NCBI GenBank assembly: GCA_944323955.1
Contig: CALUUK010000011.1
Location: 1-64,000 of the forward strand
Source: Candidatus Gastranaerophilales bacterium
GTDB taxonomy: Bacteria > Cyanobacteriota > Vampirovibrionia > Gastranaerophilales > Gastranaerophilaceae
Direction of reading: 5' to 3'
Length of the DNA stretch: 64,000 bases
The translations under genes and the position numbers were made by a program. The notes under the pieces are model-generated. The model searched no databases and was not told the origin of the DNA. It saw nothing but the letters and a program-made list of their open reading frames with translations. This document shows, in pieces, positions 8,006 to 21,205 of the stretch; the stretch's first letter is position 1, and each line of letters starts with the position of its first letter.

Positions 8006-8563
8006 CTATTTTATCTGTTTTATAACTTTACACGGGCTGCCAACTGCAATGACGTTTGAAGGAATATCTTTTGTAACAATACTCCCTGCCCCTATAACTG
8101 TATTATCACCGATTGTTACACCGCCCAAAACAACTACATTCCCGCCAAACCATACATTATTACCGACTTTTATCGGTTTTGCATATTCCAGTCCCTGATT
8201 TCTTGTCTCTGCGTCCGTCGGATGTTCCGCCGTATAAAATCCGCAATTTGGGCCGATAAATACATTATCTCCAAATTCAACTTTACCGGGGTCAAGAATA
8301 ATTAAGTTGTGGTTTGAATAAAAGTTTTCGCCAAGGCTGATATTATATCCGTAATCACATTGAAAAGGTTGTTCCATATGGTAATTGTTTTTTACTGAGC
8401 CGAGAAGCTGTTTCAGAAGAGCTTTCCTCTCCTCTGTCTTTTCAGGGGGAAGATTATTATATTTATAACAAAGGCTTTTACATTTTATTCTTTCTTCAAA
8501 AAGAAGTTTGTCATAATTGGCATCATATAATAATCCGTTCAGCATTTTTTCTTTTTCATTCAT
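8006..8563 (-). CDS. Sugar O-acetyltransferase (maltose/galactoside acetyltransferase type)
   Basis: This 185-residue protein begins with the small helical Mac domain (KMLNGLLYDANYDKLLFEER). It continues into a left-handed beta-helix of hexapeptide repeats ending GNNVWFGGNVVVLGGVTIGD. The catalytic His is in YTAEHPTD. The family transfers acetyl from acetyl-CoA to a sugar hydroxyl in the cytoplasm. It is the first gene of the minus-strand run that continues with a membrane acyltransferase, a nitrilase-family enzyme and the DXS-like enzyme. The sugar is not identifiable. Confidence 0.88.
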   Translation of the reverse strand: MNEKEKMLNGLLYDANYDKLLFEERIKCKSLCYKYNNLPPEKTEERKALLKQLLGSVKNNYHMEQPFQCDYGYNISLGENFYSNHNLIILDPGKVEFGDNVFIGPNCGFYTAEHPTDAETRNQGLEYAKPIKVGNNVWFGGNVVVLGGVTIGDNTVIGAGSIVTKDIPSNVIAVGSPCKVIKQIK

Positions 8564-9346: not shown

Positions 9347-10273
9347 TCACAGATAACGCCGTAAACCCAGTGAAAGAACAATACCGTTTCTTCCGCCGTT
9401 TCTGATAGTTGCCTGAACATATCCCGAATATTTTTCTCCGTCTGTTTTTTGAACACCGATACCGTATTGTACATAAGGCTTTACACTTATGTCTCCAACG
9501 CTTACATCATTTGCGGAAAAGTTTGATTCGTTCATTAAATTCCAGACGGTCTGAATACCAAAATAAGGTTCCCATCCGTTATCAAAGTTTCCTGTAAATT
9601 TAATTCCGGGCATAAGCTGTATGGAGTGAACCGGTTCCGATTTAACCATAACATTATCACCGTTAAGGTAATCAAACGTATTTACAAATAAATATGCGCA
9701 TAAAAAACTAGGTTGCACCATGAGTTTTTTATTTAAAAGTTCAAAATTATAACCTGCCTTTATCGCACTTGCCGAATTAAGCATCGCAAAATTTATGTTC
9801 TCCGAATCACTGTGTGATTCGGCATTTGCTGCGCCTATATTCGTCAAAAAACCGATATAAAAATTTTTTCTGAAAAATACTCCCGATACACCTATTTGTC
9901 CTCCATTCTGGACGATGTTGCGTCCTTTATATATTTGTCTTGAACCTGTATAACCGGTATGAAAAGTAAATACGGAATCCCAGTCGGGGTTTAATTCTAT
10001 AACATTTGTGTCATATCCTATGTATGCTCCATATCCGGTATTATGTACTTTGTTTTTATTTTCCAACTCTATTGTTTCAAAAGAAGAATAAGGTCTTATC
10101 CACAGACTTTCCGTTCTTGATGAGCGCTGTTCCGGAGAAAATGTTGATACAGAAGAATTCGGAACCGTTACCGCTTTTACATCCGGCAAAAATAAAAACA
10201 CAGCAAAGAATAAAAGAATATGTGCATACAATTTTTTATTCACAAATTTCGACCTTTTGGTCAAATTTAACAT
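9347..10273 (-). CDS. Outer-membrane beta-barrel (autotransporter-domain type), no passenger
   Basis: The 308-residue reading frame has a signal peptide (NKKLYAHILLFFAVFLFLP, cleaved near VKA). A short linker and about 250 residues of alternating polar/aromatic strands follow, ending in LGLRRYL. This matches an autotransporter beta-domain, including GYGAYIGYD and aromatic-girdle repeats. No passenger domain precedes the barrel. A GTG at 10243 directly before the signal peptide, with AAAGG upstream, may be the true start rather than the ATG at 10273. It lies 18 bases after the acyltransferase gene and is probably co-transcribed with it. It implies a Gram-negative envelope. Confidence 0.72.
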   Translation of the reverse strand: MLNLTKRSKFVNKKLYAHILLFFAVFLFLPDVKAVTVPNSSVSTFSPEQRSSRTESLWIRPYSSFETIELENKNKVHNTGYGAYIGYDTNVIELNPDWDSVFTFHTGYTGSRQIYKGRNIVQNGGQIGVSGVFFRKNFYIGFLTNIGAANAESHSDSENINFAMLNSASAIKAGYNFELLNKKLMVQPSFLCAYLFVNTFDYLNGDNVMVKSEPVHSIQLMPGIKFTGNFDNGWEPYFGIQTVWNLMNESNFSANDVSVGDISVKPYVQYGIGVQKTDGEKYSGYVQATIRNGGRNGIVLSLGLRRYL

Positions 10274-11871: not shown

Positions 11872-11935
11872 GCTTATATTCTTTAAAATTCGATTGTTGA
11901 AAAAAATAAGTTCTTATAGGATAATCTAAGAAAAT

Positions 11936-12022
11936 GGAGAGATGTCCGAGCGGTTTAAGGTGCAAATCTCGAAAATTTGTGAAGGGGTAACTCTTCCGAG
12001 GGTTCGAATCCCTCTCTCTCCG
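11936..12022 (+). tRNA. tRNA-Ser (CGA)
   Basis: This 87-base class II tRNA has acceptor arms GGAGAGA and TCTCTCC, discriminator G, anticodon CGA at 11970-11972, a long variable arm and T-loop TTCGAAT. CCA is not encoded. Its last 16 bases (12007-12022) begin a 37 bp sequence repeated on the far side of the inserted element. Confidence 0.95.
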
Positions 12023-12043
12023 TTTTTTTGATTTTAAATAAAA
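12007..12043. repeat. Left copy of the 37 bp tRNA-Ser 3'-end repeat (attL-like)
   Basis: This stretch covers the last part of the tRNA-Ser T arm and acceptor and continues 21 bases past the gene. It matches 19178-19214 in direct orientation at 36 of 37 positions; the single difference is T at 12029 against C at 19200. A tRNA 3' end duplicated at the far border is the classic mark of a site-specific integrative element. Confidence 0.8.
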
Positions 12044-12063
12044 TGAAAAAAGGGATGAGAACC

Positions 12064-12402
12064 TGTATTTTTTGAGGTAGTTTAGGAATTCGGGACAGTT
12101 TGCGAATTTTGCCCCAAAGTATTTGTAGTTTTTTGAGTAGTTTAATTTTGACAGATGGTTTGATTATTTTGGGCTGTGGCCGTTTTGAAATTTATCTAAA
12201 TTTGCCGGGATTTTTTACTAAAAAATTTAAAAAAATTTTATTGATACGAAATCGACGCAATGCTCGGAAGTAGTGTTCCAATCCTTTATCTTCAGAGTTA
12301 ATGTGTTCGTACCACGGCGGATTTTGACAAGGCTGAGCGTTAGCGAACGCCGTCCCAGTGAAAAATCTGACGGAATGTAGTTTTTACGAAAGGAAAAACG
12401 AA
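12064..12402 (+). repeat. Left transposon end and non-coding leader
   Basis: This gap contains the transposase-site-like blocks AGTTTAGGAATT (12079-12090) and ACAGTTTGCGAATTTT (12095-12110). Weaker copies follow (AGTAGTTTAATTTTG near 12136 and GGTTTGATTATTTTG near 12157). From about 12240 the sequence becomes less AT-rich and holds no gene until the MuA remnant at 12403. Several transposase sites in the same direction at an end are typical of Mu/Tn7-type elements. Confidence 0.65.
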
Positions 12403-13746
12403 ATGGAGTTTAAAGATTTTGAACCATCAATAATCCAAGACAAAAACGAATATATTAATATAAAAGAAATCGCACAAGTTAAGGGTTTGAAAAGCACTCG
12501 TTCAATCTGAATGGAAATCAACAAACCCGAAAGCAAATATATTTCAAGAGAGGTCAAAGTCAACGGCGGAACATCTTACGAAATCTTGTTTTCAAGTTTA
12601 GAGCCCGAATTACAACAAAAACTCCGAGAATCTGAAATAAAATCAACAGCACTTGTTGGTTATGAAATAATGATGTCAGAAAATACTCAATGTATTGCCT
12701 CAGCTTTACGAAACGTAATTTTAAATCTCGGTTTAATTTCAAAAGTTGTGTATCAAGATAACGGAAAGGCTTTTAAATCTAAATATTTTCAGCATTGTGA
12801 TTTTGAAGAGGGGAAATTTAACGGAGTGTATGCCAATTTAGGTATTCACTCCGTTTTTGCTAAACCATACAATGCAAGAGCAAAAGTCATTGAGAGGTTT
12901 TTCTTTGAATTTCAAGAAGAGTTTGAAAAATTAATGCCAAGTTAAATCGGGACTTCAATTGAAAACCGCCCTGCGTAGATGAACAGAAATGAAAAACTCC
13001 ACCTCCAAATTCATGAGAAACAAACTGGTGGAAAAATTCTAACGGTACAGGAAGTGATTAAATACATTTGTTGGCTTGAATTTCACAATCAGAAACCTTG
13101 TCCTAATGACCGTTCAAGAAGTATTCAAGAAATGTTGGATAGCGTTCAAAGACAAGATATTAATAAATCAGCGCTTGATTATATGATGATGAAAACTGAG
13201 GGCAGAACAATAAATAAGCACGGAATCACATTCTTGAATATGCATTACAGAAGCGATGCAATTCTCGGACTCAGAGATAAAATTTATATCCGATATAGTT
13301 TGTCTGACCTTTCAAAAGTCTATGTTTATTCGGCTAAAGGCGAGTTTTTATTCGTTGCACACAGGGTGCAAAAAGTTCACCCGATGGCGAGAGTCTTGGG
13401 GACTGTTAAGGATATGGAAGAATACAATCAGCAATACAAAAAGCAACAACAAATCAAAAGCCGACTGATTAAGAAAGTCAAATCGCATTACAAATCCGAA
13501 GATATTCCACTCTTGGAAATTGAGCTGGAGCCTGTTTTAGAAATGCTTGAGAAACAACCAAAACCTAAGAAAGAACGCAAGCAAACACCTCGTGAACAGC
13601 AGATGAACAAGCCAATTTTTGCAGATGAGATTGAGCATTTTGAATGGCTGATGAAACATGGCACAACATGTTCAGAAGATAGAAACTTTTTAGAAAACTT
13701 TTTTAAAAGCGACCAGTACAACTTATTATATGGAGATAAACTATGA
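12403..13746 (+). pseudogene. MuA/TnsB-like DDE transposase, degenerate
   Basis: One frame can be followed through three in-frame stops: TGA at 12508, TAA at 12943 and TAG at 12976. The N-terminal part (EYINIKEIAQVKGL, then SREVKVNGGTSYEILFSSL) is the Mu-type DNA-binding region. The catalytic-core end has VVYQDNGKAFKSKYF and FAKPYNARAKVIERFFFEF, which carry the second Asp and the Glu of the DDE triad. After the last stop comes the Mu transposase C-terminal barrel (about 12979-13746). Between ALV and GYEIMMSEN roughly 180 residues, including the first catalytic Asp, seem deleted. All three stop types occur, so this is decay and not recoding. Confidence 0.85.
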
Positions 13747-14105
13747 AAACAGAATTTATTATAACAAGAAATGTTAAAAAATTTGTGGCTCTAATGACAG
13801 AGTTGCAGAGTTTACCGCCTAATATTCCCAAAATGGCACTTGTATATGGAGAGCCCGGTCTTGGGAAATCTGAAACAGTTGCAAAATGGGCATTCAAAAA
13901 CCCTTGCGTATATGTTCGGGCAAAACAGGGAATGACAACAGGGTGGCTGCTTGCCGAAATTGTAAACGAGTTAGAACTTGAAGCCTGCTGGCATATTGAC
14001 GATACTTTCAACGAAAGCAAAAAAGCCCTTGCGAATAAAAGTTTTACAATAATTATTGATGAAGTTGACTATTTGATTGAAAAGAAATCTATTGAAACAC
14101 TATGA
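13743..14105 (+). pseudogene. MuB-like transposition ATPase, truncated
   Basis: This 120-residue frame overlaps the end of the MuA remnant by four bases (ATGA). It has a Walker A motif, GEPGLGKSET (about 39-48), and a Walker B motif, TIIIDEVDYL, as in the MuB/TnsC AAA+ ATPases that deliver target DNA to the transposase. It stops soon after Walker B, where a normal protein would continue for well over 100 residues with sensor motifs. It is therefore truncated and presumed inactive. Confidence 0.75.
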
Positions 14106-14254
14106 GATACAAGATTGAAAAACTTGCAAAAACTAATGAAATTGATGTTTTAGAAGAAATTTTGAATTACAATGAGCCGGATGAGCAAAAGAAAGTCCAA
14201 AACAAGCGAAATTGCGAAATACGCAAAGAGATTATTGAACAGTATTATAAATAA
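14102..14254 (+). CDS. Small ORF of 50 residues after the MuB remnant
   Basis: A 50-residue frame starts at an ATG overlapping the MuB stop (ATGA). It is charged and helical (MRYKIEKLAKTNEIDVLEEI and on), with no motif I recognise. It may be the tail of another transposon gene joined by the deletion that truncated MuB. The 142 bases between it and the specificity-subunit gene show nothing further. Confidence 0.3.
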   Translation: MRYKIEKLAKTNEIDVLEEILNYNEPDEQKKVQNKRNCEIRKEIIEQYYK

Positions 14255-14396
14255 AGTTAAAATTTTAATCTTATTATACCAATGTTATTTTAAGATTAGA
14301 TGTGTTTATGATAATAAGTATCAAGTTGCAAATTAAATTCAATAGAAAGCCTGTTGAACACTTTTTGAACTGCTAGTGATTAATGTTAAATCATAT

Positions 14397-15479
14397 TTAT
14401 AATATAAAGTCTTTGTTTATTAAATTTTTTAAATTATTTTGTGCACGAATAAGAGTTTCTTGTAATGAAATCAATTTCTCATATTTTTTTGCAATAAAGT
14501 TTTGTTCTTCTATCGATGGAATATCGATATATGTATGTTCAAAAAAACCAGTCATATTCCATGTGCCATTGTCACTATTAGATGAATATTCTAAAAATGT
14601 TTTACGATAGGCAATAGCTAACCATTGTAAATTTATTTTATATTTACATTCTTTTTTTACATATAGGATATATGCATGGTCATTTATTGTGTATTTACCT
14701 TTTTGTAAAAATTTCGTATGTCCAGCTTTTCCATTTCTTGTTACTAAAAGACCTTCTTTATTTTCAAAAACTTTAAGTTTCTTTCCTTTAATTGTTATTT
14801 GTGAAATACTTCCCATGTTCGTATTATCTTCAGTAGATGACGATAAAATTTTATATTTTATACCAGTCTTTTGAAGATTTCTATATATAAACTCTTCAGT
14901 TAGTCCACTATTGCCGCTTAAATAATCAAGTATATTTTTAATAGGTTCATTCTTTTTTTGAAAAGTTTTATAATATTCAATCAACTCTTGGCTGCATAAA
15001 ATTTTATCAATTTTTTGCATATTTTGTTCTATACTTTTAAGATTTTTTTCATATTTTGAGTTTATTTCAATAACATGATTTTGAATTTCGTCATTTGGAA
15101 TTTCAATATCTATTTCTTCTACAATTTCTCGATTTAAATAACTTATATTTTCTTTACTTGTCATAGCTTTTAAAAATTTATGTCTTAATAAATATTTAAT
15201 ATATTCCAATTTTACAAGATCTTTTTTTCCTTCTTTAAAATAAAGTACAGCTGTATTATTTGCGTCAAACAAAGAATCTTGAATGAATAAATTACCAGAA
15301 AATCCCTTGGTAGGGTATGTCAAACATGGTAGATCTTTTTCACTAACAATACTTTTATTCCAATATCCTTTTATATCATTATTCCCGGTATATATTGGAA
15401 TTCTACCGAGACTATTATATATTTCTTCATCGGTAATTTGATGTCCTTGATTAATATAGAATATATCTTTTAATTTCAT
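14397..15479 (-). CDS. DNA specificity subunit (HsdS / BcgI-B type)
   Basis: This 360-residue protein has two target-recognition halves (about 1-160 and 175-360). Each ends in a helical stretch, as in type I HsdS (NEIQ-like IPNDEIQNHVIEIN; IPSIEEQNFIAKKYEKL). It picks the bipartite DNA site for the partner subunit. Its ATG overlaps the partner's stop (15476-15479), so translation is coupled. The size is near the roughly 340 residues of the BcgI specificity subunit. Confidence 0.85.
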   Translation of the reverse strand: MKLKDIFYINQGHQITDEEIYNSLGRIPIYTGNNDIKGYWNKSIVSEKDLPCLTYPTKGFSGNLFIQDSLFDANNTAVLYFKEGKKDLVKLEYIKYLLRHKFLKAMTSKENISYLNREIVEEIDIEIPNDEIQNHVIEINSKYEKNLKSIEQNMQKIDKILCSQELIEYYKTFQKKNEPIKNILDYLSGNSGLTEEFIYRNLQKTGIKYKILSSSTEDNTNMGSISQITIKGKKLKVFENKEGLLVTRNGKAGHTKFLQKGKYTINDHAYILYVKKECKYKINLQWLAIAYRKTFLEYSSNSDNGTWNMTGFFEHTYIDIPSIEEQNFIAKKYEKLISLQETLIRAQNNLKNLINKDFIL

Positions 15480-17512
15480 TTGAGTACCTTCTTTAGTGAA
15501 ACAATAATATCTGACAACTTTTTGTCAAATTCTTGTAAAGTAATATATTCCGCCTCATACGGTCTTAAATAATATTCTGGTAATAATGTATAATAATTAT
15601 CGTTTAATATTGTAGCTATATCTATATTCCCACCTTTTCTTAAACTTATTCTTTCTCCTTTTTCATCTATCCATACTGTACCTTTTTTGTCCTTATCATC
15701 AAAACATAGCCATCTGGATTCCAAAAGTCCTGGCATTTCTTCACCTTCTGGACTAACCCAACCTGAGATTTCATCATGCATCCAGCCATTTCTATTATTT
15801 CTTAATTTTGTTGGGAATCTTTTATCCGAATTTGCTAAACCATCATTGTCTATTATATACATCCATATTGGTTTTGATTGGATTTTGGTAGTTTCTTCAC
15901 TTCGTTTTGTTACAAAAACAGCATAAGTTTTCTCTTTTGTATATGGAGCAAATGCAAATTTTGGAAGCGATATAATTGCATCTATGTTACATTTTTCCAG
16001 TAACTCATACCTTAACTTTTTTAAGGTAGGATTTTCTAAAACTCCATCTGGAATAATTATACATGCTTTTCCTCCAATCTCTAATAGCTCAACAATTTTA
16101 CACATAAATGCGATTTCACATCTTGTAGAAGATATACTAGACGTATTTGCTTTTATAGTACCATTACCATAAGGTGGATTGGTAAGCACATATTGATATT
16201 TTTTATTTAATAATTTTGTAGTATTTTTCTTTTGGGGTTGCAGAGAATTATCATTGTACATATTTGTATGCCCGTCTCCAACAAGAAACATATTAAGTCT
16301 TGTTCTTGAAATATTTTCACCTCTTACATCTATGCCATAAAAACATTCTTCAGATAGAAATTTTTTTGCATTCTCATCTAGAGTTCCCGATTTTTCCCAA
16401 TTATTTTTTAATACTTTAAAGCTTTCTGTGAGAAATCCACCTGTGCCACAGGCTGGATCTATTATATTAAATTTACGATTCCTGTTAAAAAATAATTCAT
16501 CTTGCAATAAGAGTTTTGAAAATATATGTGTATAATGTCTACGAGTAAAATATTCTCCAAAATCTTTCTTTTCCTTTGCATTGGCAAACATTTCATATAC
16601 CGCACCAAACAAATCAAATCCCGTGCCATGTAATGGTTTCATTCCATCAATTGTTTCATATATCAATTTAACGTCTTTCTTGCTTATAAGAGGTTTTTCT
16701 CCATTAATACCACTTATTAAATTTTTCACTATATCCATTAAATTTTTAAATTCACCAAAAGAGGTCTCTTGTTCAAGGTTTGAGATATATGCACAAATAT
16801 TTCCTACTAATTTTGTGTCATTAGTATCGTTACATTCACTCCAATATATTTTACTATTATCTTTTTTACAATCTATTATTTCTTTTTCTTCAAAATATTC
16901 TAATGCTATAAAACCAATTGTAAAGTCTATTTTTTGTACATTATCTTTAAAATTAATTCCCCTATAAATATTTGCTAATTCCCATAATTTCTTATTAAAA
17001 ATCGCTTCAGATATTGCTGATATCGAATCAACATTTGTTAAAATGTTTGTTAATTCGGCGTCTTTTGTTAATCTATTTTTAATTAATCTAAATATATCAA
17101 TAGTTTGAAATTCTCTTATTGGATTTCCATTTAAAGAAATTTCATTTAAATTTTTTGAGTTATAAAATATTGTTTTTTTACAATTAGTTACTATAAAATA
17201 TGGCAAATTAAGTTTTTTAGATTTTATAATTCCTTGTTTTTTTGCATCTTCCCAATCTTTGTCGCCAATAACACAATCATCTTTAGCCTCTGCATATGCA
17301 ACTAAATTCTCTATATATTGTTTATCATTAGTTCCATCATATTCAAATTCAGATATTAATATATCAGGTCTTTTAGAACCTGTATATTTAGAAAATGTTG
17401 TATCATTAACAATTTGTCTAAAAGGTATACTTAATTGATTTACTAGAACTTCATTAATTAATCTTGAAACAGATAAGGCTTCTTGTTTCTTTTGCTTGTT
17501 TTTCATTGCCAT
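15476..17512 (-). CDS. Fused restriction endonuclease / N6-adenine methyltransferase (BcgI-A type)
   Basis: One chain carries both cutting and methylation. The N-terminus is an HsdR-like PD-(D/E)xK nuclease (RPDILI with D50, then E75-A-K77; numbering from the ATG at 17512). The middle has the HsdM helical region and GEYFTRRHYTHIF. The SAM-binding motif is DPACGTGGF (352-360) and the catalytic motif is NPPY (445-448). No helicase/translocase domain is present, so it is not a type I R subunit. A chain of this kind with a separate S subunit matches BcgI-like type IIB/IIG systems, which cut on both sides of a bipartite site. An ATG 12 bases upstream is possible, but the ATG at 17512 has better spacing from AAAGGA. 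It follows the ATPase gene by one base. Confidence 0.85.
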   Translation of the reverse strand: MAMKNKQKKQEALSVSRLINEVLVNQLSIPFRQIVNDTTFSKYTGSKRPDILISEFEYDGTNDKQYIENLVAYAEAKDDCVIGDKDWEDAKKQGIIKSKKLNLPYFIVTNCKKTIFYNSKNLNEISLNGNPIREFQTIDIFRLIKNRLTKDAELTNILTNVDSISAISEAIFNKKLWELANIYRGINFKDNVQKIDFTIGFIALEYFEEKEIIDCKKDNSKIYWSECNDTNDTKLVGNICAYISNLEQETSFGEFKNLMDIVKNLISGINGEKPLISKKDVKLIYETIDGMKPLHGTGFDLFGAVYEMFANAKEKKDFGEYFTRRHYTHIFSKLLLQDELFFNRNRKFNIIDPACGTGGFLTESFKVLKNNWEKSGTLDENAKKFLSEECFYGIDVRGENISRTRLNMFLVGDGHTNMYNDNSLQPQKKNTTKLLNKKYQYVLTNPPYGNGTIKANTSSISSTRCEIAFMCKIVELLEIGGKACIIIPDGVLENPTLKKLRYELLEKCNIDAIISLPKFAFAPYTKEKTYAVFVTKRSEETTKIQSKPIWMYIIDNDGLANSDKRFPTKLRNNRNGWMHDEISGWVSPEGEEMPGLLESRWLCFDDKDKKGTVWIDEKGERISLRKGGNIDIATILNDNYYTLLPEYYLRPYEAEYITLQEFDKKLSDIIVSLKKVLK

Positions 17513-17513
17513 T

Positions 17514-18824
17514 TTAAATACCATCCTTTAAAATTTCATCTAACTTACCTGCCATGTACAATGGAATATTATAAAGCCCATTGTTTATCTCAAAATCAGC
17601 AAGTGAAGTTCTTATGCTTATCTCTGGTTCAAATTTCTCTCGATAAACCTTAAGACTTTTTGCTTGTAAATTTGTATTAGCTTTCACTTCGACAGGAATT
17701 ACATACCCGTCAGTTTGAATAATAAAATCAATCTCAGCATTTCCAGACTTACTTATCCAATAAGCAATTTCCATATCTTCAATAGTTTTTAATTGTTGCA
17801 ATACATACTGCTCTGCTAAAGCACCGTTAAATTCTGTAAAAATTTTATCTCCTTCAATCAAAGTTCTTGCAGGAAGCTTACTTAATGCAGATAATAAACC
17901 TACGTCTAAAATAAATAATTTAAATGCTTTAGTGTCTTCATATGCTTTTAATGGTAAAGCAGGTTTTGTAATACGGTTTATTTTATAAACCAGTCCACAA
18001 TTAATGAGCCAAGATAAAGCTTCCTCAAACTCATCTGCTCTTGCTCCGGATTTCATTTTTTTATAAACAAACTTCTTCCTTTCTTGAGTTAATTGACTTG
18101 GAATTGACTCCCATAATAAATCAATTTTCAACTTGCCAGTAGAAGATATATGTTTTGAAAAATCCCTTGTATATGCATCTAAAATATTTTCTTGAATCTT
18201 ACGAACTTTTTGAAAATCATTTGTTTCGATGTAAGTGCCAACAACTTCAGGCATTCCGCCTATATAATAATATTTTTTTAGCCACTCAATATACTTTTCT
18301 TTAAAAACTTTTATATTAGGAGATTTAGGACTTTTTAGTAATTCTGTAAAATTACTTTCACCAATGGCATCTAAAAATTCTGAAAATGATAGAGGATATA
18401 AATCAAGAAAATCTACTTTTCCAACCGGAAAAGAAACATTTTCATGAATAGCCACTCCCAATAAACTGCCAGCTGCAATAATATTATATTCCGGAGTGTT
18501 TTCATAAAAATATTTAAGAGCCGTTAATGCTTTTGGGCATTCTTGAATTTCATCAAGTATTATTAGTGTATTTTGGGCATCAATTTTAGAATGGGTTAAC
18601 TCCAAACCTTCAATAATTCTTTTTGTATCAAAATCTATTGAAAACAGATCACACATTAACTTGTCTAATTCAAAGTTTATATAAATAACCTTTTTGTATT
18701 CAGTTTTGCCAAACTCTTTCATTAACCAGGTTTTACCAACTTGACGAGATCCTCTGATTATCAAAGGTTTTCGTTTTGAATTATTCTTCCATTCTATGAG
18801 TTTATTTATTGCGTATCGTTTCAT
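17514..18824 (-). CDS. AAA ATPase with DUF4143 C-terminal domain
   Basis: This 436-residue protein has an N-terminal AAA_14 domain with Walker A GSRQVGKT (25-32) and Walker B LIILDEIQE. The DUF4143 domain carries a nuclease-fold-like end (NAEIDFIIQTDGYVIPVEVK) with PD-(D/E)xK-type acidic residues and Lys. Such ATPases are common cargo in gut bacteria and their role is unknown. It is the first gene of the transposon's minus-strand operon and may regulate or aid the restriction pair, but that is only inference from position. Confidence 0.85.
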   Translation of the reverse strand: MKRYAINKLIEWKNNSKRKPLIIRGSRQVGKTWLMKEFGKTEYKKVIYINFELDKLMCDLFSIDFDTKRIIEGLELTHSKIDAQNTLIILDEIQECPKALTALKYFYENTPEYNIIAAGSLLGVAIHENVSFPVGKVDFLDLYPLSFSEFLDAIGESNFTELLKSPKSPNIKVFKEKYIEWLKKYYYIGGMPEVVGTYIETNDFQKVRKIQENILDAYTRDFSKHISSTGKLKIDLLWESIPSQLTQERKKFVYKKMKSGARADEFEEALSWLINCGLVYKINRITKPALPLKAYEDTKAFKLFILDVGLLSALSKLPARTLIEGDKIFTEFNGALAEQYVLQQLKTIEDMEIAYWISKSGNAEIDFIIQTDGYVIPVEVKANTNLQAKSLKVYREKFEPEISIRTSLADFEINNGLYNIPLYMAGKLDEILKDGI

Positions 18825-19064
18825 TCAATCTCTCTCAGTATATAACTTAACAAAAATTAACAATAAATAACTCATCCAAAAATACGATTCTACATTTTTC
18901 CAAACGACTTTTATGGGACTTGGAACATTATATCTAACGACTTTGAATGGTAATATTACATTTCTATTAACTACTTTTTCTAAAAATAAAGTTACTTAAA
19001 AATAACGTTGCCCGAAATTCTCAAACTGTCTGTTAAAAATTCCTAAACTGTTTGTAAATTTACA
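18825..19064 (-). repeat. Right transposon end
   Basis: There is no gene here. GAAATTCTCAAACTGT (19014-19029) and AAAATTCCTAAACTGT (19036-19051) are reverse complements of the left-end blocks, in mirrored order and with the same distance to the terminal TACA. The rest is AT-rich and probably holds the promoter of the ATPase operon. Confidence 0.65.
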
Positions 19065-19177
19065 ACCCTCACAAAACGGAGTTTTGTAAAAGGTTCGAGC
19101 GCGAGTGAGCAGAGGCTGCAGCAGCGGAGACGATGAGGCTTCGATGCGGAACGCCGTTTAATGCGAACGAGAAAGAC

Positions 19178-19214
19178 AATCCCTCTCTCTCCGTTTTTTC
19201 GATTTTAAATAAAA
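19178..19214. repeat. Right copy of the 37 bp tRNA-Ser 3'-end repeat (attR-like)
   Basis: This is a direct repeat of 12007-12043 with one mismatch. The 113 bases between the transposon end and this copy are more GC-rich than the surroundings and hold no gene. They may be what is left of an integrative element that first used tRNA-Ser. Confidence 0.8.
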
Positions 19215-19240
19215 AAACGACCTTTAATAAGGTCGTTTTT
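19213..19240 (-). terminator. Intrinsic terminator after the coiled-coil/CHAP-like gene
   Basis: Twelve-base arms, AAAAACGACCTT (19213-19224) and AAGGTCGTTTTT (19229-19240), enclose loop TAAT. On the minus strand the arm ends in a T run. It sits just beyond the stop of the gene at 19253. Confidence 0.8.
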
Positions 19241-19252
19241 TGTTAAACACTT

Positions 19253-21205
19253 TTAACCTACGGGAATATGTACGCTCATTGACGAATATGAATCTTTATA
19301 CCAGTCACCGATCGCATTGGTGCCGTCACTTATTTCGTTGCCTTTTCCATCCATAATCATAACGTGTCCGTAAGGATGTCCCGAGGTCGCGCCGAAGGAA
19401 ACAACCGTACCTGCAGGCAGTGAATATAAGAATTCCTGAACCTGACCGGCACTCATACTGTTAAAGTCAAAATCAGTATACTCTTCAAAGTCGCTTCTTC
19501 CTCGCATTACATTTGTATAATCACATCCGTTGCCCCAGGTTCTTGGTTGTCCGGTTGCTAACTCAAGCGAATCTGCAACGCCGCCCGCACACATACCGCC
19601 AAACCCGCTGTTAGGATATAAAGACGCTGCCGCATCAGCTAAGTTTTGACCGTACTCTGCGTTATACATTGAAAGAGCGTCCATTGCATTTTCTCTTTGA
19701 ATTTCTTTTGCTTTCGCTTCATTCAACTTTTCGTTAATTTCGTTAAGCTCATTTTGCTTTGTTTCAACAACTTCGTTTGCTTTTTCGAGCTCTTGAGTTT
19801 TAACTGTTTCAACATTTTCTTTCGCTTCCTCATAGGCTTCTTTTACCGACATGAGTTCATCGCTGTTTTCCAGCTTTTCTATATCAGCTTCTATTTGTGC
19901 TTTGCCGCGCGGTTCGCCTTCATTGCTGTTTAATTTTTCAAGTTCACCTTCTTTTTCTTCAAGTGTTGTTTCTAATGCGGACAAATCGTTTTCCATTGTT
20001 TGAAGGTCATTTTTTTGCGTTTCAAGTTCTGCGTTCAATGTTTCAATTTGATCTTTTACCGATTGAATTTGACTGTCAATTTTAGCCTGTTTTTCTGAAT
20101 CGTCAGAACTGAGTCCTTCAAGCGAAGATAATGAAGATTCAAGCGCGGATATGCTTGATTCTGTTGATGTTATTGCTGCTTCCTGATTTGATATTTCAGC
20201 TTCTTTATCATTAATTGATACTTTTGTATCATCAATTTCCTGTTCTTTTGAAGAAATGTTGTTCAAACAGGTTTCAAGCTCATTACCTAATCCTTCATCG
20301 GCTTCTTTAACCGCATCAATATAGTCTTGCTTTTTTGTTTCACAATCTTCTTGTGCAGATGCAACAGCTTCATTTTGCCCGTTATGAACACTGTTTACGT
20401 CCTCACGTGCAGAGTTTAGTTCTTCTTGTTTTGCTGCTTTTTGTTCTTCAAGTTCTTCAACTGACATGGTTTCAAATTCATTTGCAGACTGTATATTACC
20501 TGATGATGTTGAACCGCTGCTTCTGCCTGTTGAACCGCCTGTTCTTGAGGCTCCGGTTGTCCCGGAAGAACGTGAAGGGGTTGAACTTTGTGCTCTTTCA
20601 GCTTTTTGAGCTTCTTCAAGCGCCTTTTGTCTTTCTTCCTCTTCTTTTGCCGCTATTTCATCAGGATACAAAAACTTGCCGTTTTGAATATCTTCCAAAG
20701 CGGATACAATATCTTCCAGAGATATTGATCTGCTATTACCGTCATAATCTTTAATTGCATCATAAAATTCGGAAACTTCGCTGTCTGTAACTTCACCGTC
20801 TTCATCTCTGTCAATAAATTCGGCAAAACTTTTATCCTGCAACAGTTCATTTAATATTCCGACAACGGCATTTTGAGAGTTCATAGCATCGGTATTCTGC
20901 GGTTCTTCACCTTCAACATCTGTCGTTTCATCCGTTTCTGACGGTGCCGCTTCTGCCGTATCCTTGTCTACAAGTTGTCCGTCTACAATTTCATATTTTC
21001 TTAAGTGTTTTATATTTTGTATCAGTTCTGATGCCTGCGAAGAATCCAGATTTAGCTCTTTTTTGATATATTCGCTAAATTCATCAATATTGCTGAAAAT
21101 GCTGACATCTATATCAGCTCTTTCATTAGCTTCACTGCCGGAGTTCTCATACTGTTTACTTAGCAGATATTGTTCAAAACCGAGCTTAAGTTCACCGAAA
21201 TTCAT
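19253..21205 (-). CDS. Coiled-coil protein with EF-hand and a C-terminal CHAP/NlpC-like cysteine-peptidase-type domain
   Basis: This 650-residue protein starts MNFGELKLGFEQYLLSKQYE and has no signal peptide that I can see. A canonical EF-hand loop (D132, D134, D136, G137, E143) suggests calcium binding. A Ser/Thr/Gly linker (about 200-235) precedes a long Glu/Gln/Ser-rich coiled coil (about 245-510). The last ~110 residues (GFGGMCAGGVADSLELATG with C539, then GHPYGHVMIMD with H610 and H614) look like a papain-like amidase or peptidase of the CHAP/NlpC type. The coiled coil plus cell-wall-type domain resembles peptidoglycan-cleaving division factors. The lack of a signal peptide leaves export unexplained. 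Confidence 0.6.
   Translation of the reverse strand: MNFGELKLGFEQYLLSKQYENSGSEANERADIDVSIFSNIDEFSEYIKKELNLDSSQASELIQNIKHLRKYEIVDGQLVDKDTAEAAPSETDETTDVEGEEPQNTDAMNSQNAVVGILNELLQDKSFAEFIDRDEDGEVTDSEVSEFYDAIKDYDGNSRSISLEDIVSALEDIQNGKFLYPDEIAAKEEEERQKALEEAQKAERAQSSTPSRSSGTTGASRTGGSTGRSSGSTSSGNIQSANEFETMSVEELEEQKAAKQEELNSAREDVNSVHNGQNEAVASAQEDCETKKQDYIDAVKEADEGLGNELETCLNNISSKEQEIDDTKVSINDKEAEISNQEAAITSTESSISALESSLSSLEGLSSDDSEKQAKIDSQIQSVKDQIETLNAELETQKNDLQTMENDLSALETTLEEKEGELEKLNSNEGEPRGKAQIEADIEKLENSDELMSVKEAYEEAKENVETVKTQELEKANEVVETKQNELNEINEKLNEAKAKEIQRENAMDALSMYNAEYGQNLADAAASLYPNSGFGGMCAGGVADSLELATGQPRTWGNGCDYTNVMRGRSDFEEYTDFDFNSMSAGQVQEFLYSLPAGTVVSFGATSGHPYGHVMIMDGKGNEISDGTNAIGDWYKDSYSSMSVHIPVG

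What the first reader, a model, noticed from the sequence alone, without database searches (positions are those of the whole stretch)
12064..19064. Complete Mu-like transposon with readable ends and restriction-modification cargo
TGTA and TACA termini each lie exactly 15 bases from an AGTTTAGGAATT block, and further transposase-like sites follow inward. Dead MuA/MuB genes lie on one side and a BcgI-type R-M operon with an ATPase on the other. This gives exact borders of 7,001 bp for a non-phage Mu-type element with defence cargo, frozen because its transposase is broken.
Basis: partly seen in the sequence, partly recalled or inferred. Interest (0 to 1): 0.65.

Follow-up and report, generated by a model that had tools for sequence, protein, structure and literature searches.

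The report
tRNA-adjacent Mu-like transposon with restriction cargo
A dead jumping element carrying a restriction-modification operon sits just behind a serine tRNA gene in a gut bacterium (Gastranaerophilales lineage), and its relatives show that this branch of Mu-type transposons inserts again and again just behind tRNA genes, always in the same orientation, which suggests a built-in aiming system.

Summary
Observation confirmed. Ends at 12064 (TGTA) and 19064 (TACA), each 15 nt from AGTTTAGGAATT, are the only such pair in the 1.96-Mb genome; MuA and MuB are dead; an intact methylase/specificity/ATPase operon is inside. Congeners keep the empty site (GGGATGAGAACC|CTCACAAAACG), so the borders hold, but only 3 bp (ACC) are duplicated, whereas relatives show 5-bp duplications. 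The element is a mosaic: a second left end starts at 12124. Relatives show the cause: newer copies insert inside the left end of older ones.

New point: the position 40 nt behind tRNA-Ser is not chance. Of 60 MuA relatives with enough upstream sequence, 41 have a tRNA or tmRNA within 1.5 kb, all same-strand with the 3' end facing the element (control ORFs 4/325; p = 7e-36). Left ends begin 42-118 nt after the tRNA. Intact relatives encode MuA, MuB and a third protein: a conserved winged helix fused to interchangeable C-terminal parts (unknown domain; integrase core-binding domain; tyrosine recombinase, sometimes catalytically dead). I infer that this is the target selector, parallel to TnsF of Tn6022 and CasMuC. 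R-M cargo recurs. No description of tRNA-directed Mu-family transposons was found in the papers searched.

The parts
11935..12023 (+). tRNA-Ser (CGA), the landmark next to which the element sits; 40 nt between tRNA 3' end and element
   Evidence: ARAGORN, Rfam tRNA 50.5 bits
12064..12123 (+). outer left end, TGTA...AGTTTAGGAATT...ACAGTTTGCGAATTT, cut to 60 nt
   Evidence: empty-site border
12124..12175 (+). second (inner) left end, TGTAGTTTTTTGAGTAGTTTAATTTTGACAGATGGTTTGATTATTTTGG; start of a newer element inserted inside the older left end (inferred)
   Evidence: alignment; same arrangement in L179 (8979/9066), proven nesting in L185 and L238
12403..13746 (+). MuA pseudogene: N-terminal part to about 12636, then about 190 residues missing (first catalytic Asp), then DDE C-part and Mu-transpos_C with internal stops
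   Evidence: Pfam PF09299; 67% identity to intact MuA P0001 over residues 295-664 with TAG and TAA inside; A1 alignment
13743..14105 (+). MuB remnant (first 120 of about 250 residues; AAA_22)
14397..15479 (-). specificity subunit (Methylase_S, two stretches)
15476..17524 (-). 682-aa N6-adenine methylase with an N-terminal extension holding a PD-(D/E)xK-like motif (RPDILI...AEAK, read by eye): candidate combined restriction-methylation protein
   Evidence: absent from 40 congeners
17514..18824 (-). AAA_14-DUF4143 ATPase, first gene of the cargo operon
   Evidence: PADLOC candidate PDC-S01
19014..19064 (-). right end, TGTAAATTTACAAACAGTTTAGGAATTTTTAACAGACAGTTTGAGAATTT read inward
19065..19214 (+). 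host flank: tRNA-Ser-linked repeat that ends in a copy of the tRNA 3' end (19178-19214); already present in element-free congeners

Best explanation
12064-19064 is a dead, mosaic member of a MuA/MuB transposon family of Candidatus Gastranaerophilales that inserts 42-118 nt downstream of tRNA and tmRNA genes with its left end towards the tRNA 3' end. Shown: ends, empty site, dead transposition genes, intact R-M cargo, and the orientation-locked tRNA association, nested insertions and 5-bp target duplications in relatives. Inferred mechanism: MuA binds paired sites at the ends and joins them to target DNA with a 5-bp stagger; MuB is the AAA+ bridge; the third gene (winged helix plus a variable, often integrase-derived, C-terminal part) recognises the target and recruits MuB. 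Repeated visits to one tRNA put new copies into the left ends of older ones. In the window one such nested insertion, followed by deletion of the third gene, parts of MuA/MuB and the inner right end, left a frozen R-M operon between family termini.
For: Empty site in congeners. End pattern unique to the two borders. tRNA association 41/60, 0 opposite, control 4/325, p 7e-36; genus survey, 17 loci, all same strand; offsets 42-118 nt, median 58. Nested insertions with exact 5-bp duplications CTGAA (L185) and CTGAT (L238), and a 15,018-bp element with CTGAA on both sides. MuA profile hits Mu transposase in PDB at E 3e-10, ahead of TnsB at 1e-5; MuB = AAA_22/TniB. Third gene conserved after MuB with variable C-terminus. 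R-M cargo also in L199 (HsdR/M/S) and L177 (DpnII plus two methylases).
Against: The window itself shows only a 3-bp repeat (ACC) at its borders. The window has no third gene, so its own targeting cannot be read. More divergent MuA (<60% identical) are mostly not next to tRNAs (4 of 15), and some loci with the unknown-domain third gene have no tRNA in view. No experiment shows that the third gene selects targets.
Confidence: 0.8

Rival explanations
1. The two outer termini come from different insertions in a stack at the same tRNA: the right end (flank ACCCT) is the remnant of the oldest copy, the left end at 12064 belongs to a later copy inserted 2 bp further left, and deletions fused them. 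The 7,001 bp are then a scar of several elements, not one transposon.
For: With 5-bp duplications as in relatives the right flank ACCCT predicts a left flank ACCCT, but GAACC is found; two left ends in tandem point to more than one insertion; stacks are common in relatives.
Against: The outer left and right ends share the AGTTTAGGAATT subtype exactly, which occurs nowhere else in the genome at this spacing; a 2-bp loss at the left junction explains the mismatch as well.
Confidence: 0.35
2. A genomic island integrated by a tyrosine recombinase at the tRNA-Ser 3' end, with the 37-bp direct repeats 12007-12043 and 19178-19214 as attL and attR.
For: Direct repeats of the tRNA 3' end flank the region at 97% identity.
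Against: Element-free congeners carry the same arrangement tRNA - repeat - tRNA 3' copy, so the repeats predate the element; no integrase gene inside; the inserted DNA begins and ends at TGTA/TACA, inside the repeat unit.
Confidence: 0.05
3. A decayed Mu-like prophage of this family that lost its phage genes and picked up an R-M operon.
For: Many relatives carry MuA-MuB-third gene followed by a second MuA/MuB pair, a phrog_286 protein and an endolysin, some on 38-kb viral contigs.
Against: No phage gene remains in the window; relatives L199, L177, L188 and L217 have R-M, methylase or other non-phage cargo in the same place, so non-phage members exist as such.
Confidence: 0.15
4. The tRNA association is only survival bias: insertions near tRNA genes are harmless and persist.
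For: tRNA flanks are common safe sites for mobile DNA (general knowledge).
Against: Survival bias does not fix orientation: 41 same-strand, 0 opposite, while control ORFs in the same loci show 4 same and 20 opposite; insertions also land within a narrow 42-118 nt range and inside older left ends next to the tRNA.
Confidence: 0.07

Closest known systems
Bacteriophage Mu / MuA-MuB transposition
   Same: MuA-type DDE transposase with Mu-transpos_C and Mu I-gamma-like domain, AAA+ partner, TG..CA ends with paired sites, 5-bp target duplication in relatives
   Different: Orientation-locked insertion behind tRNA genes, a conserved third gene, R-M cargo and no phage genes in the window; Mu itself inserts widely and avoids mature tRNA sequences (PMC7350765)
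CasMu-I / CasMu-V (CRISPR-associated Mu transposons, PMC10910872)
   Same: Mu transposases with co-opted target selection; CasMu-I has an HTH protein and an inactivated MuA paralog (CasMuC); one third gene here also contains a Mu I-gamma-like domain (L241)
   Different: No CRISPR array or Cas gene seen in the window element; the selector is presumably a protein; targets are tRNA flanks
Tn7-like elements homing to tRNA genes (e.g. CyCAST, CAST I-B2; PMC10293859)
   Same: Insertion downstream of tRNA genes (CyCAST 30-33 nt after tRNA-Leu), TnsC-like ATPase, target duplication, cargo genes
   Different: No TniQ/TnsD found by family searches; transposase closer to MuA than to TnsB
Tn6022 TnsF target selector (PMC10293859)
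   Same: A tyrosine-recombinase-derived protein without catalytic residues used for target choice; here L104 and L097 have lost the catalytic arginines and L086/L098 keep only the core-binding domain
   Different: Here fused to a winged helix and placed in a MuA-MuB operon, not with TniQ; function inferred
BcgI-like R-M (combined A subunit plus B specificity subunit)
   Same: Architecture and sizes (from memory for BcgI): 682-aa methylase with N-terminal extension and 360-aa specificity subunit
   Different: Cleavage, recognition site and subunit requirement unknown; best family matches are to type I methylases in general

Membership tests
Mu-family transposon (MuA/MuB) | MuA-type DDE transposase | tested here: met
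   Window C-part hits Mu-transpos_C at 1.5e-14; intact relatives hit phrog_310 at 2.7e-117 and Mu transposase 4fcy at 3e-10
Mu-family transposon (MuA/MuB) | AAA+ MuB partner encoded next to MuA | tested here: met
   AAA_22 remnant in the window; intact partner phrog_296 at 1.4e-48
Mu-family transposon (MuA/MuB) | TG..CA ends with paired binding sites | tested here: met
Mu-family transposon (MuA/MuB) | 5-bp target duplication | tested here: inconclusive
   Exact 5 bp in three relatives; only ACC in the window
Bacteriophage Mu proper | broad, low-specificity target choice | tested here: not met
   41/60 relatives behind same-strand tRNA/tmRNA
Tn7-like transposon | TniQ/TnsD target selector next to TnsC | tested here: inconclusive
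   Third gene matches no TniQ family in Pfam, NCBIfam, PHROGs or PADLOC; a distant relation is not excluded
CRISPR-associated transposon (CAST or CasMu) | CRISPR array and Cas effector in the element | tested here: not met
   No CRISPR-like repeat array in 11900-19300 and no Cas gene among the ORFs; relatives not searched
BcgI-like type IIB R-M | nuclease fused to N6-methylase plus separate specificity subunit | tested here: inconclusive
   N6_Mtase and Methylase_S found, PADLOC type IIG model at 1e-18; nuclease motif read by eye only
BcgI-like type IIB R-M | cuts on both sides of its recognition site | not testable with these tools
   needs an enzyme assay
Tyrosine-recombinase island at a tRNA | tRNA 3' end duplicated only when the island is present | tested here: not met
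   duplication already present in element-free congeners

The most novel reading that the evidence does not exclude
A branch of Mu-family transposons and Mu-like phages uses a protein target selector encoded behind MuB, built from a conserved winged helix plus interchangeable C-terminal modules, several derived from phage integrases with lost catalytic residues, to insert at a limited distance and in one orientation behind tRNA genes: protein-guided Mu transposition, an independent counterpart of TniQ/TnsF-guided Tn7.
Probability: 0.5. Interest if true: 0.78.

Novelty: new variant of a known kind. Interest (0 to 1): 0.62.

Why it matters
Phage Mu is the textbook low-specificity transposon; directed insertion is known mainly for Tn7-like elements, and for Mu relatives only through CRISPR (CasMu). 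A Mu branch that homes to tRNA flanks by a protein would show how directed transposition arises in this clade, would link integrases (which use tRNA 3' ends as attachment sites) to transposase targeting, and would explain why R-M operons collect behind tRNA genes in these gut bacteria. The window is a fossil of the process with the nesting preserved.

Tried and rejected
Integrase island at the tRNA (direct repeats 12007/19178): rejected, the repeats exist in element-free congeners. The 12-mer block alone as evidence: rejected, chance level; the spaced pattern was used instead. A broad regular expression for all ends gave mostly noise and was replaced by stricter ones; few right ends were recovered that way. 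Folding of the 19065-19200 repeat: no structure beyond shuffles (z 0.73). The unknown C-terminal domain of the third protein: no Foldseek match in PDB at E <= 0.001; VIA-align rows cover only the winged helix, residues 1-55; the domain was not folded alone, so there is no claim that it is a new fold. BFVD matches are a 225-aa uncharacterised siphovirus protein (32% identity) and, over a part, a phage 'integrase'. Cargo in plasmids: only the ATPase matches weakly. Literature searches for Gastranaerophilales transposons or tRNA-directed Mu elements gave nothing on point; the library lacks most subscription papers and all preprints, so prior description is not excluded.
Full report
WHAT IS IN THE WINDOW. 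The two termini are as described. TGTA starts at 12064 and TACA ends at 19064 (7,001 bp); each is 15 nt from an exact AGTTTAGGAATT. Two-mismatch hits to the 12-mer are at chance level in the window, but the spaced pattern TGTA-N9-15-AGTTTAGGAATT occurs in the whole 1.96-Mb genome only at these two borders, facing inward, and 3 times in 40 congeners. The first 70 nt of the ends align far better than shuffles (32 against at most 24). Between them lie, on the + strand, a MuA pseudogene (12403-13746) and a MuB remnant (13743-14105), and on the - strand three intact overlapping ORFs: AAA_14-DUF4143 ATPase, N6-adenine methylase of 682 aa, specificity subunit of 360 aa. Compared with intact relatives, MuA lacks about 190 residues including the first catalytic Asp (D268 of P0001) and has internal stops; MuB ends after about half.

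BORDERS. Congeners with the same tRNA-Ser keep the element-free sequence ...GGGATGAGAACCCTCACAAAACGAAGTTTTGT..., a repeat unit behind tRNA-Ser that ends in a copy of the tRNA 3' end; the window reads GGGATGAGAACC[12064..19064]ACCCTCACAAAACGG. The borders are therefore confirmed, and the 37-bp tRNA-end repeats at 12007 and 19178 are older than the element. The flanks share only ACC. In relatives I found exact 5-bp duplications: CTGAA in L185, CTGAT in L238, and CTGAA around a 15,018-bp element in genome G025 with intact MuA and the same AGTTTAGGAATT block at its right end. The window is thus 2 bp short of a proper duplication: either a small loss, or the two termini belong to different insertions.

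A NESTED SECOND LEFT END. The 'further sites' are a second left end beginning at 12124, TGTAGTTTTTTGAGTAGTTTAATTTTGACAGATGGTTTGATTATTTTGG, of the type found in many relatives. L185 and L238 show how this arises: a newer element has inserted inside the left end of an older one, with a 5-bp duplication, leaving old-left-part, new left end, new element, new right end, old-left-rest. L179 has the same tandem as the window: an AGTTTAGGAATT-type outer end and a GTTTGATTA-type inner end. In the window the inner right end is gone. That the inner element inserted into the outer one is inference by analogy.

THE FAMILY GOES TO tRNA GENES. The host is a Candidatus Gastranaerophilales bacterium, judged from close relatives. 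A genus survey found 17 MuA loci (of 49 looked at, the window included) behind a tRNA or tmRNA, all with the 3' end facing MuA. A second set from public genomes, partly overlapping the first (80 loci kept of at least 514): of 60 with 1.5 kb upstream, 41 have a same-strand tRNA or tmRNA within 1.5 kb and none has an opposite one; control ORFs in the same loci give 4 same and 20 opposite of 325 (Fisher p 7e-36). Eleven of the remaining 19 have a same-strand tRNA 1.8-9.3 kb upstream, as expected for stacks. The loci are not all independent (some near-duplicates; related genomes), so the p-value is nominal, but Ser, Met, Arg, Phe, Asn, Gln, Asp, Ala and tmRNA genes are all used in this set, so shared descent of one insertion does not explain it. 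Left ends start 42-118 nt after the tRNA 3' end, median 58 (33 loci); the window has 40 nt. MuA at least 60% identical to P0001: 39 of 55 tRNA-linked; below 60%: 4 of 15.

THE THIRD GENE. Intact elements read MuA - MuB - third gene. In most tRNA-linked elements it encodes about 225 aa without a family match; AlphaFold with 30 sequences gives pLDDT 88, a winged helix at 1-55 and a second part without a confident match. In other members the same winged helix is joined to different C-terminal parts: integrase core-binding domain alone (L086 behind tRNA-Arg, L098 behind tRNA-Gly), core-binding plus partial catalytic domain (L102, L117), a tyrosine recombinase that looks intact (L241) or nearly so (L253), or one whose catalytic arginines are gone (L104, L097: TGASIPEL, SDLQHNF, read by eye); L241 also has a Mu I-gamma-like domain. 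A conserved head with exchangeable DNA-binding tails in a MuA-MuB operon is what a target selector should look like, as in TnsF of Tn6022, an inactivated tyrosine recombinase (PMC10293859), and CasMuC, an inactivated MuA paralog (PMC10910872). That the third gene directs targeting is inferred. The correlation is not clean: several loci with the unknown-domain type have no tRNA in view.

CARGO AND PHAGE VERSIONS. L199 (behind tRNA-Arg) carries type I HsdR/M/S and L177 (behind tRNA-Ser) a DpnII endonuclease, two methylases and an OLD-like ATPase; right borders were not determined for these, so membership of the cargo is by position. Other relatives continue with a second MuA/MuB pair, a phrog_286 protein and an endolysin, some on 38-kb viral contigs: Mu-like phages with the same front module.

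HOW IT PROBABLY WORKED. MuA brings the ends together; MuB and the third protein choose the site behind a tRNA; strand transfer gives 5-bp duplications; the element sits with its left end to the tRNA, sparing the gene. New arrivals at the same tRNA land in the old left end. In the window such layering and deletion removed the mobility genes; the R-M operon stayed open, possibly because it is useful or addictive (inference). The operon is absent from the other 40 genomes of the genus at E 1e-60, which fits recent arrival.

VERDICT. Observation right, interpretation partly right. As a single object the window element is an ordinary dead transposon with R-M cargo; the family behind it, tRNA-directed Mu-type elements with a modular candidate target selector, is the interesting part and was not found described in the literature I could search.

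Noticed in passing
window 19065-19214; also G016:C96, G012:C11, G019:C6 and others: A repeat of about 150 bp behind tRNA-Ser genes ends in a copy of the tRNA 3' end (AATCCCTCTCTCTCCG) and is dispersed in most of the 41 congeners, sometimes in tandem; nature unknown, no significant RNA fold in the window copy.
   Followed up: partly
L185 about 9555-9627; L238 about 8440-8512: Just inside the right end of two nested elements lies a tRNA 3' fragment (T arm and acceptor strand) in the orientation of the target tRNA. It could be a captured target, a decoy site or something functional.
   Followed up: no
L204, L207/L255, L223 and about 20 similar loci: Mu-like phages of this lineage carry two different MuA/MuB pairs in tandem, with the tRNA-linked pair and third gene first.
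   Followed up: partly
L253:12671-13777 and L241:4489-6216: Third genes with seemingly intact or nearly intact tyrosine recombinase domains inside MuA-MuB operons; could resolve cointegrates instead of selecting targets.
   Followed up: no
L087:10255 and L088:6955 (same genome as the window): Further right-end-like sequences (TGTAAAAGAACAC-TGGTTTGATT) without a nearby MuA of this family: remnants of more elements in this genome.
   Followed up: no
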